A stretch of 64,000 nt of DNA, taken from NCBI GenBank assembly GCA_016215605.1, contig JACRJB010000030.1:1-64000 (forward strand), given 5' to 3'. Shown piece after piece: positions 197 to 60,263 of this stretch (position 1 is the first letter of the stretch; each line of letters begins with the position of its first letter). Below the pieces are notes generated by a model, which was not told the origin of the DNA, did no database searches, and saw nothing but the letters and a program-made list of their open reading frames with translations. The stretch comes from Rhodopseudomonas palustris. Its GTDB lineage: Bacteria > Pseudomonadota > Alphaproteobacteria > Rhizobiales > Xanthobacteraceae. A program made the position numbers and the translations under genes.

Positions 197-338
197 CCTC
201 TCCCCGCGCGCGGGGAGAGGTCGACCGGCGAAGCCGGGCGGGTGAGGGGGCGTTTCCGCGAGGTCGAGACTCAGTGCCCGTGTCGCCCCTCACCCCAACC
301 CTCTCCCCGCAAGAGCGGGGCGAGGGAGCGCGCCGTGC
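197..338. repeat. palindromic intergenic repeat, family A (copy 1)
   Basis: Two hairpin ends of the type CTCTCCCCGC...GCGGGGAGAG enclose a variable middle and the words GCCGGGCGGGTGAGGG and CCCTCACCCCAACC. The same architecture recurs near 3199, 7293, 9444, 9912, 10051, 12824, 13048 and 36385. The stretch 131-429 holds this repeat and nothing else I recognise; it lies beyond the 3' end of the flavin hydroxylase gene. Confidence 0.85.
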
Positions 339-3198: not shown

Positions 3199-3350
3199 CC
3201 TCTCCCCGCGCGCGGGGAGAGGTCGCCCGGCGGAGCGCAGCGAAGCCGGGCGGGTGAGGGGGCGCTTCGACGGGGCCGAGCCTCTGTGCTCGCGTCGCCC
3301 CTCACCCCAACCCTCTCCCCGCAAGAGCGGGGCGAGGGAGCCTGCCGTGC
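3199..3350. repeat. palindromic intergenic repeat, family A (copy 2)
   Basis: Nearly the same as the copy at 197-338, with both terminal hairpins and the GCCGGGCGGGTGAGGG and CCCTCACCCCAACC words. It fills most of the 346-base gap 3175-3520. The remainder (3351-3520) is leader for ribB, in which I see no FMN riboswitch. Confidence 0.85.
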
Positions 3351-7266: not shown

Positions 7267-7292
7267 GACTGACCGAGTCCGTGCCCGTGTCT

Positions 7293-7340
7293 CCCTCACC
7301 CCAACCCTCTCCCGCAGGCGGGAGAGGGAGCGCGCTGTGC
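7293..7340. repeat. palindromic repeat, family A (right half only, copy 3)
   Basis: CCCTCACCCCAACCCTCTCC followed by the CGCAGGCGGGAGAGGGAG hairpin and the GCGCGCTGTGC tail. It abuts the 3' end of the DUF1499 gene. Confidence 0.75.
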
Positions 7341-7385
7341 GGGTGGTCGGCTTTGTAGCTGAACTCGACGCGTTGCTGAGCACCA

Positions 7386-12823: not shown

Positions 12824-13212
12824 TGCAACCTCTCCCGCTTGCGGGAGAGAGCCTGCCCTCGGGCTTGACCCGAGGGTCGGACCGGCGGAGCGCCGCGAAG
12901 CCGGGACGGGTGAGGGCCCTCCGCTCCACGAATCGCTGGCTCTCGGCCCGCGTCGCCCTCACCCCAACCCTCTCCCGCAAGCGGGAGAGGGAGCGCGCCG
13001 TGCGTGAGGGGGCTTCCGCAACAACAAAAGAGCCGGAGCAGCCGGCACAGCGCAACCTCTCCCGCTTGCGGGAGAGGTCGGCCCGGCGGAGCGTAGCGAA
13101 GCCGGGACGGGTGAGGGCACTCCGCTCCGCGAGTCGCAGGCTCACTGCCTGCGGCGCCCTCACCCCAGCCCTCTCCCGCAAGCGGGAGAGGGGGCGCGCC
13201 GTGCCTGAGGGG
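12824..13212. repeat. two tandem copies of family A repeat (copies 6 and 7)
   Basis: 12824-13018 and 13048-13212 are direct, diverged copies. Each opens CACAG(T/C)GCAACCTCTCCC plus GCTTGCGGGAGAG, passes GCGAAGCCGGGACGGGTGAG and closes CCTCACCCCA(A/G)CCCTCTC plus CGCAAGCGGGAGAG. The copies are separated by a short CAACAAAAGAGCCGGAGCAG spacer. They fill most of the 499-base gap after the extensin-like gene; no coding sequence is seen there. Confidence 0.85.
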
Positions 13213-13226
13213 GGCGCTTGCGCCAT

Positions 13227-16737: not shown

Positions 16738-16833
16738 GATTTTGCTCGTCGACCTGTGGCAGAGGCCGAGCAGCCTATTCCGCGCTGGGATCGGCGCAAG
16801 TGGTTGTGCAACTGCATCTTGCGACATCCCCCA

Positions 16834-16990
16834 CGTTCGTCGTTCCGGGGCGCGAGCGTAGCTCGCGAACCCGGAATCCATATCCCCTGAACTCGCGGTG
16901 AGGCGCAGCGCCGCAACCATCGTGCCTTGCCGCCCAGCGCGGTGGTTATGGATTCCGGGTTTGCGCTCCGCGCGCCCCGGAATGACGAAC
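16834..16990. repeat. palindromic repeat, family B (copy 1)
   Basis: Outer arms GTTCGTCGTTCCGGGGCGCG and GCGCCCCGGAATGACGAAC are inverted complements. Inner arms GAACCCGGAATCCATA and TATGGATTCCGGGTTTGC also pair. The same nested design is found at 21485, 29707, 35437, 35803 and 38644. Confidence 0.88.
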
Positions 16991-17071
16991 GAGAGGGGTT
17001 TTTGTGCGGGCAGTCGCCGTCCGTCGGGTGCGTCGCGTCCAACGACGCGATCGTCAAAGGGGCTTGCGGCG

Positions 17072-17781
17072 CCTCTTGACAATAGTCCTAGTGTGATTAT
17101 AGTCCGCATCGTCCTGTCCGTGAGGGGCGCTTCGCGAGGCGTCGTACAAGCGGGACAGATCGACGGGCCGGGTAACCGGTCCGGAACGATGGTTCGACGA
17201 AGCCGGCATTGCGCTGGCGGAGTCGGACGGACGCGGCGTCCTGCGCGTTGCGGTTCGCACCCGCACGTCCGGGAGGCTTCGGGGACCCGTCCGGGCCTAC
17301 TACGAGGCTCTGCGACTTGTTAGTTCGCTGCACGGGGGCAGGCGAAGGCGGCGAAATCCGCCGGACCGTGGGGTTTCATTACCCTTGCCTGTCAACGGAA
17401 GCACGGGCCCGAAGACAGAAAGCGCCGCGGTGGGCGCGCCGGAAGGCGTTACGCGATGGTCGCAAGCCATCGCGAGAAACCACCAAACCCCGCGCCGACC
17501 GGCGCGCCCCCACCCCTCGCTGTGACAGCGACGGGTGCAAAAACTCGGGCTCAGCGGAGCCGCGAGACGAATTTCGCGTGGCTGTTTGATAGTTGAATCG
17601 GGGATCGCGATGAGGCGACGAATTCGCTCCGCCGACAGCCGTCATCCGCGGGCTCGACCCGCGGATCCATCGCGCGCGGAGCGCGCTGACTGAAGTACGT
17701 CTTGCGAAGAGGATGGATTGCCGGGCCTTCGCCGCGCCGAAGGGGCTTCGGCCCCGCAGGCGGGTCAAGCCGGGCAATGAC
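17072..17781 (+). repeat. long repeated element, copy 1 (family D, promoter-bearing)
   Basis: About 0.7 kb, nearly matched by the reverse complement of 59580-60263. Conserved blocks are the promoter (17076-17103), about 130 bases following it, and the segment from about 17430 to the end, which itself closes in a large palindrome (GCCGGGC...GCCCGGC type arms with GGGGCTTCGGCCCC inside). The stretch from about 17275 to 17430 has diverged. A reading frame after the promoter contains WFDEAG and [16 protein letters not shown] in both copies, but codon bias does not convince me that it is a protein. It occupies much of the 1.2-kb gene-free stretch 16738-17958. Confidence 0.85.
17076..17103 (+). promoter_or_regulatory. 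sigma-70-type promoter at the head of long repeat copy 1
   Basis: TTGACA at 17076-17081, 16 bases, then TATAGT at 17098-17103. The same hexamers and spacing occur in copy 2 on the minus strand. Transcription would start near 17110 and read into the element. Confidence 0.7.
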
Positions 17782-18579: not shown

Positions 18580-20859
<2,280 letters not shown>

Positions 20860-21426: not shown

Positions 21427-21484
21427 CAAGTCGTTCGTCTCAGTAACAACCCGCTCGTCAACGTTTGCGCACCACCTCTCCACG

Positions 21485-21632
21485 AGTCATTCCGGGGCGC
21501 GCGCAGCGCGAACCCGGAATCCATAACCACTGTCCTCGCTGTAAGGCGAGGCGTTCCGACGCGGTGCTTCACCGAGAACTCAGGGAGTATGGATTCCGGG
21601 TTCGCGAGCTGCGCTCGCGCCCCGGAATGACT
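21485..21632. repeat. palindromic repeat, family B (copy 2)
   Basis: GTCATTCCGGGGCGCGCGCA with GCGAACCCGGAATCCATAAC, about 50 bases, then TATGGATTCCGGGTTCGCGA and the closing GCGCCCCGGAATGAC. It lies between convergent rsmD and prmB. Confidence 0.9.
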
Positions 21633-21706
21633 CGCGGAGAGGTCGGGGCTGGACGTCGGCTATGGGGGCTCAACGTCGGCGATGGTGGTTGTTTCGAACT
21701 AACTAC

Positions 21707-29706: not shown

Positions 29707-29822
29707 GTCATTCCGGGGCGCGCGCAGCGCGAACCCGGAATCTCGAGCTGTTCATCCGGCGCCGGGTGCAACAACCGCTGGATTCCGGGTTCGCTCGCTG
29801 TCGCGAGCGCCCCGGAATGACG
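29707..29822. repeat. palindromic repeat, family B (copy 3)
   Basis: GTCATTCCGGGGCGCGCGCA with GCGAACCCGGAATCTC at the left, GGATTCCGGGTTCGCTCG and GCGCCCCGGAATGACG at the right. Confidence 0.9.
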
Positions 29823-33860: not shown

Positions 33861-35435
33861 ATGGCTGAAAAACCGAAGAAACCGCAGAAACTCCGCGCCC
33901 GGCTGCCGCGCGGCCTGGCCGACCGCGGCCCCGCCGAGATCGCCGCGACGCGCGCGATGGTCGAGACCATCCGCGAGGTCTACGAACGCTACGGCTTCGA
34001 GCCGGTCGAGACCCCGGCGTTCGAATACACCGACGCGCTCGGCAAGTTCCTGCCCGACCAGGACCGCCCCAACGAGGGCGTGTTCTCGCTGCAGGACGAC
34101 GACGAGCAGTGGATCAGCCTGCGCTACGACCTCACCGCGCCGCTGGCGCGCTACGTCGCCGAGAATTTCGACGCGCTGCCGAAGCCGTATCGCAGCTACC
34201 GGTTCGGCTGGGTGTTCCGCAACGAGAAGCCCGGCCCCGGCCGCTTCCGCCAGTTCATGCAGTTCGACGCCGACACGGTGGGCTCCGGCTCGCCGGCCGC
34301 GGACGCCGAGATGTGCATGATGGCCGCCGACACGATGGAAGCGCTGGGCATTCCGCGCGGCAGCTACGTGGTGAAGGTGAACAACCGCAAGGTGCTGGAT
34401 GGGGTGCTGGAGTCGATCGGGCTTGGCGGCGACGAGAACGCCGGGCGTAGGCTCACGGTGCTGCGAGCGATTGATAAGCTGGACAAATTCTCCATCGAAG
34501 ACGTCAAGAAGCTCTTGGGCCCAGGGCGTTGGGACGGCGGTGAAGAAGGCAAGGGCGATTTCACAAAGGGTGCCGAGCTAAACCCTGAACAACTGAAGCT
34601 AATCGAAGGCTATCTCGCGGTTGCAAAATTGGAGGAAAAGCAGGCGGCCGATTTTGCCGCTTCAGGGATCGGATTTCCAGCAAGCGCTACACTAGATGCT
34701 TTAGAAGAGATATTTGGCAGCAATGCCACTGCTAAAGCCGCAATTGATGAGCTGCGAGTAATCGCCGATCTCTTTGAAGCAAGCGGCTATGGCAATGGTC
34801 GTATTGTTATAAGTTCATCCGTCGTCCGCGGCCTCGAGTACTACACCGGCCCGGTCTACGAGGTCGAACTGCTGCTCGAGACCAAGGACGAGAAGGGCCG
34901 GCCGGTCCGGTTCGGCTCGGTCGGCGGTGGTGGGCGTTACGACGGCCTCGTCTCGCGTTTCCGCGGCGAGCCGGTGCCGGCGACAGGGTTCTCGATCGGC
35001 GTGTCGCGGCTGCAGGCGGCGCTGACGCTGATCGGCAAGCTCGGGACCCGGCCCGCGACCGGCCCGGTGGTGGTGACAGTGTTCGACCGCGAGCGCCTCG
35101 CCGACTACCAGAAGATGGTGTCGCAGCTCCGCGCCGAGGACATCCGCGCCGAGCTCTATCTCGGCAATCCGAAGAACATGGGCAACCAGCTCAAATACGC
35201 CGACAAGCGCAACTCGCCTTGCGTGATCATCCAGGGCTCCGACGAGAAGAACGATCCGGACGGCCCGCAGGTGATCGTCAAGGACCTGATCCTCGGCGCC
35301 GAACTCGCCGCGCTGGACAAGGATCGCGACGACTATCTGCAGCGCCAGGCCGACGCCCAGCGCAAAGTGCCGCAACTCGGGATGATCGACGAAGTGCGAC
35401 GGATCCTGGCGCGGCACGACGTGACGTGGCGGTAG
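33861..35435 (+). CDS. hisS: histidyl-tRNA synthetase
   Basis: A 524-residue class II synthetase that charges tRNA-His. Motif 1 and 2 regions ([31 protein letters not shown]), the histidine-binding [13 protein letters not shown], the [11 protein letters not shown] motif and the C-terminal anticodon-binding domain are complete. The enzyme is of the longer alphaproteobacterial type with an insertion domain (about residues 190-320). That insertion, at 34440-34822, has A/T-rich codons quite unlike the rest: I counted 89 G/C in the 180 bases at 34621-34800 (about 49%) against 46 of 60 at 35041-35100. The frame is unbroken, so this looks like replacement of an internal segment, not damage. Confidence 0.95.
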
Positions 35436-35436
35436 C

Positions 35437-35540
35437 CGTCGTTCCGGGGCGCGCCGTCAGGCGCGAACCCGGAATCTCGCAGTTCAGGGCACCATGAGAT
35501 TCCGGGTTCGCGAGCTTCGCTCGCGCCCCGGAATGACGAA
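35437..35540. repeat. palindromic repeat, family B (copy 4)
   Basis: CGTCGTTCCGGGGCGCGCCG with GCGAACCCGGAATCTCGC at the left; GAGATTCCGGGTTCGCGAGC and GCGCCCCGGAATGACGAAC at the right. It separates hisS from the tautomerase gene. Confidence 0.88.
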
Positions 35541-35575
35541 CAAAACAACTTACAAAACGCAGGGAGAACATCACG

Positions 35576-35779
35576 ATGCCCGAGATCACCGTCAACATGG
35601 CCGAAGGCCGCACCGCCGAGCAGAAGGCGGCGATGATGCGCGACATCTCGCAGGCGCTGGTGACGCATCTCGGCGTCAAGGCCGAGGACGTGGTGATCCA
35701 GATCAACGAAGCCCCGCTCGGCAACAAGATGAAGGGCGGCAAGACCTTCATCGAGCGCAAGGCCGAGCAGGCGAAGTAA
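35576..35779 (+). CDS. 4-oxalocrotonate tautomerase family protein
   Basis: A 67-residue small enzyme of the tautomerase superfamily. The catalytic proline is exposed as residue 1 after removal of the initiator Met (MPEITVN). The length, the RTAEQKAAMMRDISQALV helix and the VIQINEAPLGN strand fit the 4-OT group, which forms hexamers and isomerises unsaturated keto acids. CAGGGAGAACATCACG precedes the ATG. It stands between two family B repeats, with no catabolic operon around it. Confidence 0.92.
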   Translation: MPEITVNMAEGRTAEQKAAMMRDISQALVTHLGVKAEDVVIQINEAPLGNKMKGGKTFIERKAEQAK

Positions 35780-35802
35780 GCGCTTTCCCAAAAACCTCTC
35801 GT

Positions 35803-35954
35803 TCGTCATTCCGGGGCGCTCACGAAGTGAGCGAACCCGGAATCCATAACCACCGTGCTTGCGGTTGGCCGCTGACTTGCCACGCCCGTTGTCATCGCTG
35901 ACACTGGGCGTATGGATTCCGGGTTCGCGCTTCGCGCGCCCCGGAATGACGAAC
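35803..35954. repeat. palindromic repeat, family B (copy 5)
   Basis: GTTCGTCATTCCGGGGCGCT and GCGAACCCGGAATCCATAAC at the left; TATGGATTCCGGGTTCGCGC and GCGCCCCGGAATGACGAAC at the right. It ends 30 bases before the thioesterase start. Confidence 0.9.
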
Positions 35955-35984
35955 GTTAAGTCATGGGCGAAGCAAGAGGCCGCA

Positions 35985-38627: not shown

Positions 38628-38643
38628 GTACTCCCTTTGCTGC

Positions 38644-38746
38644 CGTCATTCCGGGGCGCGCCTCTCGGCGCGAACCCGGAATCTAGAGGTTCAGGGCATC
38701 TCGGGATTCCGGGCTCGCGAGCTGCGCTCGCGCCCCGGAATGACGT
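38644..38746. repeat. palindromic repeat, family B (copy 6), inside an operon
   Basis: CGTCATTCCGGGGCGCGCCT with GCGAACCCGGAATCTAG at the left; GGGATTCCGGGCTCGCGA and GCGCCCCGGAATGACGTG at the right. It lies between two co-directional genes of the MoxR operon rather than at an operon end. Confidence 0.9.
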
Positions 38747-38769
38747 GTGGACGGCGGAATGACCTTGCA

Positions 38770-59579: not shown

Positions 59580-60263
59580 GTCATTGCCGGGCTTGACCCG
59601 CCTGCGGGGCCGAAGCCCCTTCGGCGCGGCGAAGGCCCGGCAATCCATCTTGTTCGCAAGATGATCTTCGTTCAGCGCGCTTCGCGCGCGATGGATGCGC
59701 GGGTCGAGCCCGCGCATGACGGGAGTGAGGGTGGCGAAGGCTGCGCCTATCGCGAGGTCCGATTCAACTATCAAACAGCCACGGCTCTTCGTTCTCGCGG
59801 CTCCGCTGAGCCCGAGTTGTGCACCCGTCGCTTCACAGCGAGGGGTGGGGGCGCGCCGGTCGGCGCAAAGGTGGTGAGTGTCGCGATGGCTTTGCGGACC
59901 ATCGCGCAACGCCTTCCGGCGCGCCCACCGCGGCGATTTTGGGCGTCGGGACCGTTCTTCCGGGAACACAGCGGAGCGGGATCTCCCCGGCCTTGCTGCA
60001 CCCGTCCAGCCACGAAAGCGGCAGCCGCTCGTAGTAGCGGCGGACGGTGACCTTCTGCCTCCCGGACGTGCGGGTGCGAACCGCAACGCGCAGGACGCCG
60101 CGTCCGTCCGACTCCGCCAGCGCCATGCCGGCTTCGTCGAACCATCGTTCCGGGCTGGTTACCCAACCCGCCGATCTGTCCCGCTTCAAAAGCGCCCTCG
60201 AGAAGCGCCCCTCACGGACAGGACGGTGCGGACTATAATCATAATAGGAAGATTGTCAAGAGG
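59580..60263 (-). repeat. long repeated element, copy 2 (family D, promoter-bearing, inverted)
   Basis: The reverse complement of this segment matches 17072-17781 over most of its length, including the promoter, the following about 130 bases (CCTGTCCGTGAGGGGCGCTT, then WFDEAG- and [16 protein letters not shown]-coding sequence) and the closing palindrome. The middle has diverged and is partly replaced. Here the frame after the promoter stays open for ~118 codons. Together with the short element at 59436 and a family A-like repeat at 60278 it fills the 1.07-kb gap before aroC. The two copies are inverted relative to each other about 42 kb apart. Confidence 0.85.
60232..60259 (-). promoter_or_regulatory. 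sigma-70-type promoter at the head of long repeat copy 2
   Basis: On the minus strand TTGACA (60254-60259), 16 bases, TATAGT (60232-60237), identical in hexamers and spacing to copy 1. It reads away from aroC, into the repeat. Confidence 0.7.

What the first reader, a model, noticed from the sequence alone, without database searches (positions are those of the whole stretch)
17072..17781. A ~0.7-kb repeated element that begins with its own strong promoter (pair with 59580-60263)
Two inverted copies 42 kb apart share a TTGACA-N16-TATAGT promoter, then about 130 well-conserved bases and a conserved 3' half ending in a large palindrome, with a diverged middle. The sequence right after the predicted start can fold: CTGTCC and GGGACAG pair in both copies, with a further CCGG/CCGG hairpin in copy 1. 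Conservation of promoter plus structured ends and a variable centre is what a multi-copy non-coding RNA family, or a mobile cassette with a fixed frame and variable payload, would look like. A frame encoding [16 protein letters not shown] is shared but does not look like a typical protein.
Basis: seen in the sequence. Interest (0 to 1): 0.78.

Follow-up and report, generated by a model that had tools for sequence, protein, structure and literature searches.

The report
Multi-copy folded RNA gene family
The repeat looks like one copy of a roughly 500-letter folded RNA gene, with its own strong promoter, that related bacteria carry in several to about twenty copies; its job is unknown and I found no earlier description of it.

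Summary
Two inverted copies (17075-17593 +, 60260-59765 -) start at a TTGACA-N16-TATAGT promoter and end at GTGGCTGTTTGA; the palindrome further on (about 17613-17781) is a separate dispersed repeat. In 49 copies aligned from 14 genomes, the promoter (TTGACA-N16-TATA[GA]T) is exact in 43. Helices are supported by compensatory changes, including the CTGTCC/GGGACAG stem. The sense strand folds better than shuffles (z -3.8, -4.3); the antisense of copy 1 does not (z -1.3). The GRGVLRV frame is not coding: third codon positions vary least and most indels shift the frame. A covariance model of the core hits 14 of 16 genomes of the genus (7-20 matches each) and 24 of 39 sampled genera of the family. 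Rfam has no match. The 'variable centre' is two haplotypes shuffled between loci. The last conserved bases match the boxA region of rRNA leaders in related genomes. I conclude it is a new stand-alone, multi-copy structured ncRNA gene family. Transcription is not shown; function and the boxA role are inferred. A mobile cassette with payload is not supported, though some loci are gained or lost.

The parts
17076..17103 (+). Copy 1 promoter, TTGACA-N16-TATAGT; predicted start about 17109-17111
   Evidence: TTGACA-N16-TATA[GA]T exact in 43 of 49 aligned copies
17075..17593 (+). Copy 1, whole unit (promoter + about 485-nt RNA gene)
   Evidence: alignment of 49 copies: similarity starts at the -35 hexamer and stops just after GTGGCTGTTTGA
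17108..17161 (+). 5' domain, outer stem CTGTCC/GGGACAG
   Evidence: compensatory changes across families
17162..17232 (+). Extra domain (seen in the genus and in G020): two hairpins, the first capped by a GNRA-type loop
   Evidence: absent from most of the distant members printed
17233..17428 (+). Core closed by GCGGCG/CGCCGC, with a three-way junction
   Evidence: covariance model R1 match, E 5.6e-38; covariation
17429..17514 (+). 3' domain, long GC-rich stem GGTGGGCGCGCC/GGCGCGCCCCCACC
   Evidence: sequence; an equivalent stem seen in distant relatives by eye
17578..17593 (+). boxA-like end, GTGGCTGTTTGATAGT
   Evidence: GGCTGTTTGA occurs only twice in the window, at both unit ends, 0.05 expected; rRNA leaders of related genomes carry GCTGTTTGAC
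60232..60259 (-). Copy 2 promoter, TTGACA-N16-TATAGT
59765..60260 (-). Copy 2, whole unit
60173..60227 (-). Copy 2 5' domain
59930..60101 (-). Copy 2 core (type II middle)
   Evidence: R1 match, E 1.7e-37
59771..59780 (-). Copy 2 boxA-like end, GGCTGTTTGA
17613..17781 (+). Separate dispersed palindromic repeat lying after copy 1 (not part of the unit)
   Evidence: I2; 28 of 56 own-genome match rows cover only this part
59580..59748 (-). Same separate repeat after copy 2
   Evidence: I2

Best explanation
Each copy is a stand-alone gene for a non-coding RNA of about 485 nt. SHOWN by sequence: a near-invariant promoter; a conserved multi-domain fold (5' stem-loop, a two-hairpin domain in this genus, a three-way-junction core, a long GC-rich 3' stem, small hairpins) whose core and 5' stem are supported by compensatory changes; no conserved reading frame; 7-20 core matches per genome in 14 of 16 genomes of the genus, many at orthologous intergenic places; exchange of sequence between copies; an end that matches the boxA region of rRNA leaders in related genomes. 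INFERRED: the promoter is active, the RNA is abundant, and it acts in trans as a folded scaffold or binding RNA, with many copies kept for dosage and partly homogenised by gene conversion, as rRNA operons are. The boxA-like end is proposed to load NusB/NusE(S10)/SuhB onto the transcribing polymerase, protecting this long untranslated GC-rich transcript from Rho or assisting its folding. The molecular target is not known.
For: TTGACA-N16-TATA[GA]T exact in 43 of 49 copies. Core alignment of 24 sequences: 94.6% of cells paired against 84.8% in shuffles and 36-53% when slid; 88 cells changed on both sides against 30.5 +/- 4.2. Outer 5' helix on 18 sequences from several families: 94.2% paired against 84.7% shuffled and 42-69% slid; 20 cells with double changes against 7.5. 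GNRA-type loops in 37 of 49 copies over stems CCGG/CCGG, TTGG/CCAG, CTGG/CCAG. Sense-strand folding z -3.81 and -4.34; antisense of copy 1 -1.32. Codon-position divergence 0.118/0.173/0.072 in the shared 16 codons (0.178/0.213/0.164 over the open frame), and 348 of 402 indels, counted over copies, not multiples of three. Genus 14 of 16 genomes; family 25 of 40 genomes, 24 of 39 genera, own included. Orthologous loci differ by 0.131 on average, within-genome paralogs by 0.128-0.144; the nearest neighbour is the ortholog for only 2 of 38. GGCTGTTTGA exact at the end of 42 of 49 copies, shared with rRNA leaders. In 18 of 29 loci the nearest predicted downstream ORF points towards the unit, so it is mostly not a leader of a gene.
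Against: No transcript evidence could be obtained. No terminator-like site was found on the transcribed strand after either unit, so the 3' end is unknown. boxA normally lies early in a transcript (recalled); here it is last. The own genome gave no 16S match, so its own rRNA leader was not seen. In G264 the unit ends in GCTCATTGAAAATTGAATC while its rRNA leader has GCTGTTTGACATC; G337's rRNA leader has GCTGTTTGACAAG but its units, like the other f32/f42 members read, lack the motif. Diverged paralogs in G012 and G001 (L066, L067, L069, L082, L085) also lack it in the stretch printed. In the 5'-helix test two of five measures do not clearly exceed shuffles: pairs with double changes 5 against 3.6 (76 of 500 as high) and pair types 9 against 10.4. 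Concerted evolution is modest: within-genome distances 0.128-0.144 against 0.143-0.152 for non-orthologous copies of different genomes. 2 of 16 genomes of the genus and 15 of 40 in the family gave no match, so it is not universal. The long 3' helices hardly vary, so covariation there is weak.
Confidence: 0.62

Rival explanations
1. A selfish, non-autonomous dispersed element that happens to be transcribed and structured; copies spread and are kept by self-propagation, not by a cell function.
For: Many copies, uneven copy number between species, three G012 sites lacking the element in G001, neighbouring palindromic repeats, a decayed copy in G001 (L202).
Against: No terminal inverted repeat or target duplication seen by eye and no transposase among 8 ORFs scanned near the window copies; 10 of 17 G012 copies have a both-flank counterpart in G001 or G000; promoter and helices are strongly constrained. 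An RNA-copying route would lose the upstream promoter, which is part of the unit. No match in plasmid or phage records, and none in viral contigs for an exact 28-base pattern of a sister subtype.
Confidence: 0.2
2. A cis-acting antitermination leader: promoter, structured RNA and boxA drive read-through into whatever follows, like an rRNA leader.
For: In most copies the unit ends in the rRNA-type boxA motif and little is conserved after it.
Against: In 18 of 29 loci the nearest predicted downstream ORF is on the opposite strand (crude ORF calling, some loci are orthologs of each other); downstream sequence is often a palindromic repeat; the core is more widely conserved than the boxA end.
Confidence: 0.12
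3. A purely DNA-level repeat (REP/BIME composite or recombination hot spot) with incidental folding.
For: Neighbouring REP-type repeats; copies have been points of exchange: L076 in G001 joins the upstream flank of L058 and the downstream flank of L055 of G012.
Against: Strand-specific folding energy, conserved promoter, GNRA-type loops and compensatory changes.
Confidence: 0.04
4. A short protein gene (the [16 protein letters not shown] frame).
For: Open frame of 133 codons in copy 1.
Against: Third codon position varies least (0.072 against 0.118 and 0.173), 348 of 402 indels shift the frame, frame length differs widely among 49 copies. The Pfam scan of the frame did not run.
Confidence: 0.01

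Closest known systems
Large structured bacterial ncRNAs of unknown function: OLE, ROOL, GOLLD (PMC12286853, passages seen)
   Same: Long, elaborately folded, non-coding, recognised by covariation, function poorly understood.
   Different: No Rfam match. ROOL and GOLLD are described there as encoded in phages and prophages, often near tRNA islands; this family is in dispersed chromosomal intergenic places, 7-20 matches per genome in 14 of 16 genomes of the genus, with exchange between copies and an rRNA-type boxA end.
Ribosomal RNA operon leaders with boxA (Nus factor complex; PMC5725501, passages seen)
   Same: sigma70-type promoter, structured untranslated RNA, the motif GGCTGTTTGA, loci exchanging sequence.
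   Different: boxA is at the end and no rRNA follows; I noticed no other similarity in the leaders printed, but did not test it by alignment.
Multi-copy sRNA families of Bradyrhizobium, BjsR5/6/7/10 (PMC5082802, abstract and passages seen)
   Same: Imperfect genomic copies of an RNA gene in related bacteria.
   Different: Described there as having up to four imperfect copies; sequences not compared here.
REP elements Br-REP1/Br-REP2 of Bradyrhizobium and Rhodopseudomonas (PMC5082802, passages seen)
   Same: Dispersed intergenic palindromes in 3'-UTRs.
   Different: Tens of bases long; they correspond to neighbours of the unit, not to the unit.

Membership tests
Any Rfam 15 family | Covariance-model match at gathering score, or any convincing match | tested here: not met
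   0 matches in the window; in 13 loci only two sub-threshold matches, neither in the core
Large structured ncRNA gene (general kind) | Own promoter | tested here: met
   consensus match and conservation only; activity not tested
Large structured ncRNA gene (general kind) | Helices kept by compensatory changes | tested here: met
Large structured ncRNA gene (general kind) | No protein-like constraint | tested here: met
   the Pfam scan of the frame failed on stop codons
Large structured ncRNA gene (general kind) | Transcript detected | not testable with these tools
   no transcriptome on hand
rRNA-type boxA antitermination signal | Sequence shared with the rRNA-leader boxA of the group | tested here: met
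   GGCTGTTTGA in 42 of 49 copies and in the 16S leaders of G012, G001, G020; GCTGTTTGAC in 8 of 8 leaders printed. 12 genomes were asked for 16S, 8 gave a usable leader, the own genome did not
rRNA-type boxA antitermination signal | Kept, or changed together with the host rRNA boxA, in other families | tested here: not met
   G264: unit GCTCATTGAAAATTG, rRNA GCTGTTTGACATC; G337: rRNA GCTGTTTGACAAG, motif not seen in its units
rRNA-type boxA antitermination signal | Binding of NusB/NusE and effect on Rho | not testable with these tools
   needs a bench experiment
Mobile element (IS, MITE, cassette) | Terminal repeats or target-site duplication at a clean empty site | tested here: inconclusive
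   three G012 sites lack the element in G001 but the surrounding intergenic DNA is rearranged or, at L065, identity runs to TTGACAGG and then stops, compatible with insertion or deletion; no terminal repeats seen by eye
Mobile element (IS, MITE, cassette) | Linked transposase or presence on phages/plasmids | tested here: not met
   none in Pfam scans of 8 ORFs near the window copies; other loci not scanned for transposases
Cis-regulatory leader | Consistently upstream of a co-directional gene | tested here: not met
   nearest predicted downstream ORF on the opposite strand in 18 of 29 loci

The most novel reading that the evidence does not exclude
A previously undescribed abundant RNA of Hyphomicrobiales that is organised like ribosomal RNA: many dispersed, strongly promoted genes that exchange sequence, whose transcription uses the Nus-factor boxA machinery, making a ~485-nt folded RNA that forms a major unknown ribonucleoprotein.
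Probability: 0.3. Interest if true: 0.92.

Novelty: new variant of a known kind. Interest (0 to 1): 0.74.

Why it matters
Large structured bacterial RNAs are few, and those studied have surprised (OLE, ROOL and GOLLD form RNA-only complexes, PMC12286853). This one has matches in 24 of 39 sampled genera of one family, with up to 20 matches in a genome, and an rRNA-type boxA end that I know from no other stand-alone ncRNA (recalled, not searched exhaustively). If it is expressed as its promoters suggest, it would be a prominent RNA that annotation has missed, and a natural test of whether Nus factors serve untranslated RNAs other than rRNA; PMC5725501 states that its own search did not consider non-coding RNAs.

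Tried and rejected
Protein gene: rejected by codon-position and indel pattern; two attempts at a Pfam scan of the frame failed because the stretches held stop codons and were not pursued. Known RNA: no Rfam match. Leader of downstream genes: rejected as the general rule by gene orientation. Plasmid or phage element: no match (one search used a sister-subtype pattern that the window copies themselves do not contain).

The RNAalifold structure of the 28-sequence alignment included the promoter and paired it with the boxA end (columns 10-13 with 559-562); I hold that pairing to be spurious and do not use it.

Literature: ten searches, seen as titles and abstract openings; nothing in those listings describes this RNA. 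Passages of four papers were seen; in PMC8632094 the words Rhodopseudomonas and Rhizobiales do not occur. Madhugiri et al. [quoted passage not shown]

Sensitivity limits: the order search (397 genomes, 11 positive, own included) and the class search (385 genomes, only the own genome positive) scored only 6 candidates per genome, so absence outside the family is weak evidence. The covariance model was built from 24 of the copies it then finds.

Full report
WHAT IS THERE. The two copies exist as described and are 82% identical over the reported length. Copy 1 runs from the -35 hexamer at 17076 (+) to about 17593, copy 2 from 60259 (-) to about 59765. The stretch after that (about 17613-17781; 59748-59580) is also shared by the two copies but is a separate dispersed repeat: of 56 match rows in the own genome, 28 cover only that part (40 of 183 candidates scored). 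The window is part of an unnamed 5.79-Mb genome in 78 contigs. An exact 28-base core pattern of a sister subtype (not present in the window copies themselves) occurs in 46 stretches of named genomes, 33 of them Tardiphaga (15), Pseudolabrys (10) or Rhodopseudomonas (8), the rest mostly unnamed Hyphomicrobiales/Rhizobiales. The host is therefore probably of that group; its genus is not established.

A FAMILY OF COPIES. With a 529-base query the closed genomes G012 and G001 have 21 and 18 matches, of which 17 and 12 are close to full length. I aligned 49 distinct copies from 14 genomes (two duplicate rows, L021 and L022, dropped; L006 and L009 are cut slightly by contig ends). Mean pairwise identity is 0.36-0.52 before the -35 hexamer, 0.83-0.97 from the promoter through the 5' domain, and falls to 0.31-0.49 after the end. 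The promoter is TTGACA-N16-TATAGT in 34 and TTGACA-N16-TATAAT in 9 of 49 copies. By blastn with the reported 710 bases, 29 of 61 related genomes have a match, in some only through the separate repeat.

IT LOOKS LIKE AN RNA, NOT A PROTEIN. In the shared 16 codons the three positions differ by 0.118, 0.173 and 0.072 between copies (0.178, 0.213, 0.164 over the whole open frame), so the third varies least; 348 of 402 indels relative to copy 1, counted over copies, are not multiples of three; frame lengths differ widely. On the RNA side, both window copies fold much better than dinucleotide shuffles on the sense strand (z -3.81 and -4.34, no shuffle as good); the antisense of copy 1 does not (z -1.32, 10 of 100 shuffles as good). 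The core (GCGGCG...CGCCGC, window 17233-17428 and 60101-59930) contains a three-way junction. On 24 sequences from several genera 94.6% of cells pair, against 84.8% in shuffles and 36-53% when partners are slid, and 88 cells are changed on both sides against 30.5. Two further measures of that helix do not clearly exceed shuffles: pairs with double changes (5 against 3.6) and pair types (9 against 10.4). As the tool warns, shuffles do not keep relatedness; the slid controls do, but favour a structure derived from the same sequences. A hairpin in the extra domain keeps a GNRA-type loop in 37 of 49 copies while its stem changes between CCGG/CCGG, TTGG/CCAG and CTGG/CCAG; copies 1 and 2 themselves show this change.

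DISTRIBUTION. A covariance model of the core (R1) finds 14 of 16 genomes of the genus with 7-20 matches each, some of them fragments at contig ends; the two negatives are 4.1-Mb genomes. In the family it finds 25 of 40 genomes, 24 of 39 genera; in the order 11 of 397 genomes, 9 of 142 genera, at low sensitivity, including members of other families whose loci I read. These keep the same order of domains by eye, but several have a different upstream motif. In the class sample (385) only the own genome scored. No match in plasmids or phages, nor in viral contigs for the sister-subtype pattern. Rfam 15: none.

HOW THE COPIES EVOLVE. Of 17 G012 copies, 10 have a counterpart copy matching on both flanks in G001 or G000. 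Yet orthologous copies (20 pairs, mean distance 0.131) are about as different as paralogs within a genome (0.128, 0.144, 0.139), and only slightly closer than non-orthologous copies of different genomes (0.143-0.152); the nearest neighbour is the ortholog for 2 of 38 copies, another copy of the same genome for 23, and something else for 13. At some orthologous loci the middle has switched type: L001 is type I and L064 type II; L004 type II and L057 type I. I read this as gene conversion between copies, which also explains the 'variable payload'. Copies also recombine: L076 in G001 joins the upstream flank of L058 and the downstream flank of L055 of G012. Presence varies: the sites of L049, L050 and L065 in G012 lack the element in G001; the flanks of L062 lie apart in G001 with no element found; the locus of L053 holds a decayed copy in G001. 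None of these gives a clean insertion with a target duplication.

THE END OF THE UNIT. GGCTGTTTGA occurs twice in the 64-kb window, exactly at the two unit ends (0.05 expected), and in 42 of 49 copies. The 16S rRNA leaders of G012, G001 and G020 contain GGGCTGTTTGACAAGT, and 8 of 8 leaders printed contain GCTGTTTGAC, in the part of the leader where boxA is expected (recalled). The own genome gave no 16S match. The gamma-proteobacterial boxA consensus is GYTCTTTAANA (PMC5725501, passage); GCTGTTTGACA differs at two positions. Against the reading: in G264 the unit end differs from its own rRNA motif; G337 has the motif in its rRNA leader but not in its units; the f32/f42 members read and several diverged paralogs in G012 and G001 lack it.

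CONTEXT. By a crude ORF call on 30 loci (29 with an ORF downstream), the nearest downstream ORF is on the opposite strand in 18 and on the same strand in 11, so the unit is mostly not a leader. Of 8 ORFs scanned near the window copies, four have a Pfam family: a CorA-type transporter, a pseudouridine synthase with S4 domain, Cons_hypoth95 and a histidine phosphatase, with no common theme.

CONCLUSION. The best-supported reading is a new, multi-copy, structured ncRNA gene family with its own promoter. What it does is inferred: an abundant trans-acting folded RNA whose transcription may use the rRNA Nus-factor machinery. The family identification is strong (about 0.85 in my estimate); the mechanism is weak (about 0.3), hence the combined 0.62. 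It differs from OLE, ROOL and GOLLD in copy number, location and the boxA-like end. I did not find it in print (ten searches, listed under Tried and rejected), but one directly relevant paper was not available.

Noticed in passing
window 16829-16991, 21472-21638, 29730-29793, 35435-35955, 38642-38751: Paired inverted copies of GATTCCGGGTTCG...CGCCCCGGAATGAC, 12 motif hits (up to 1 mismatch) in the window against 0.21 expected; resembles the Br-REP2 consensus quoted in PMC5082802.
   Followed up: partly
window 17613-17781 and 59580-59748: A dispersed palindromic repeat (GTCATCCGCGGGCTCGACCCGC...CCGGGCAATGAC) that lies just after both window copies of the RNA unit and has many solitary copies in the own genome.
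   Followed up: partly
L123, L125, L127, L128, L133, L135, L140, L145 (just upstream of the 5' domain): In other families the TTGACA promoter is replaced by a shared CTTATCCCCGCCCTCCnAACCTCCCnTATACT-like motif, with GGGGATA-n-TTATCCCC as an inverted repeat in several: possibly a regulated promoter (by eye).
   Followed up: no
L085 (G001:C1:2805513-2805755): A copy carrying two insertions of a small hairpin repeat (ATCGCA..CAAGTTTACGCAG..CTGCTATG) in opposite orientation inside or at the edge of the core (by eye).
   Followed up: no
window 228-338, 3240-3350, 7283-7346, 12875-13213: Other dispersed repeats, several with CCTCTCCCGC/GCGGGAGAGG-type palindromes.
   Followed up: no
window 18580-20856 (+): Pseudouridine synthase (S4 + PseudoU_synth_2) whose gene holds direct DNA repeats at 19005-19378, by eye a KRPYTPR-like low-complexity stretch.
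   Followed up: no
G001 C1:3559300-3562000 (L194): The G001 counterpart of the L050 site holds an apparent transposase gene between palindromic repeats and no RNA unit (transposase named by eye, not by search).
   Followed up: no
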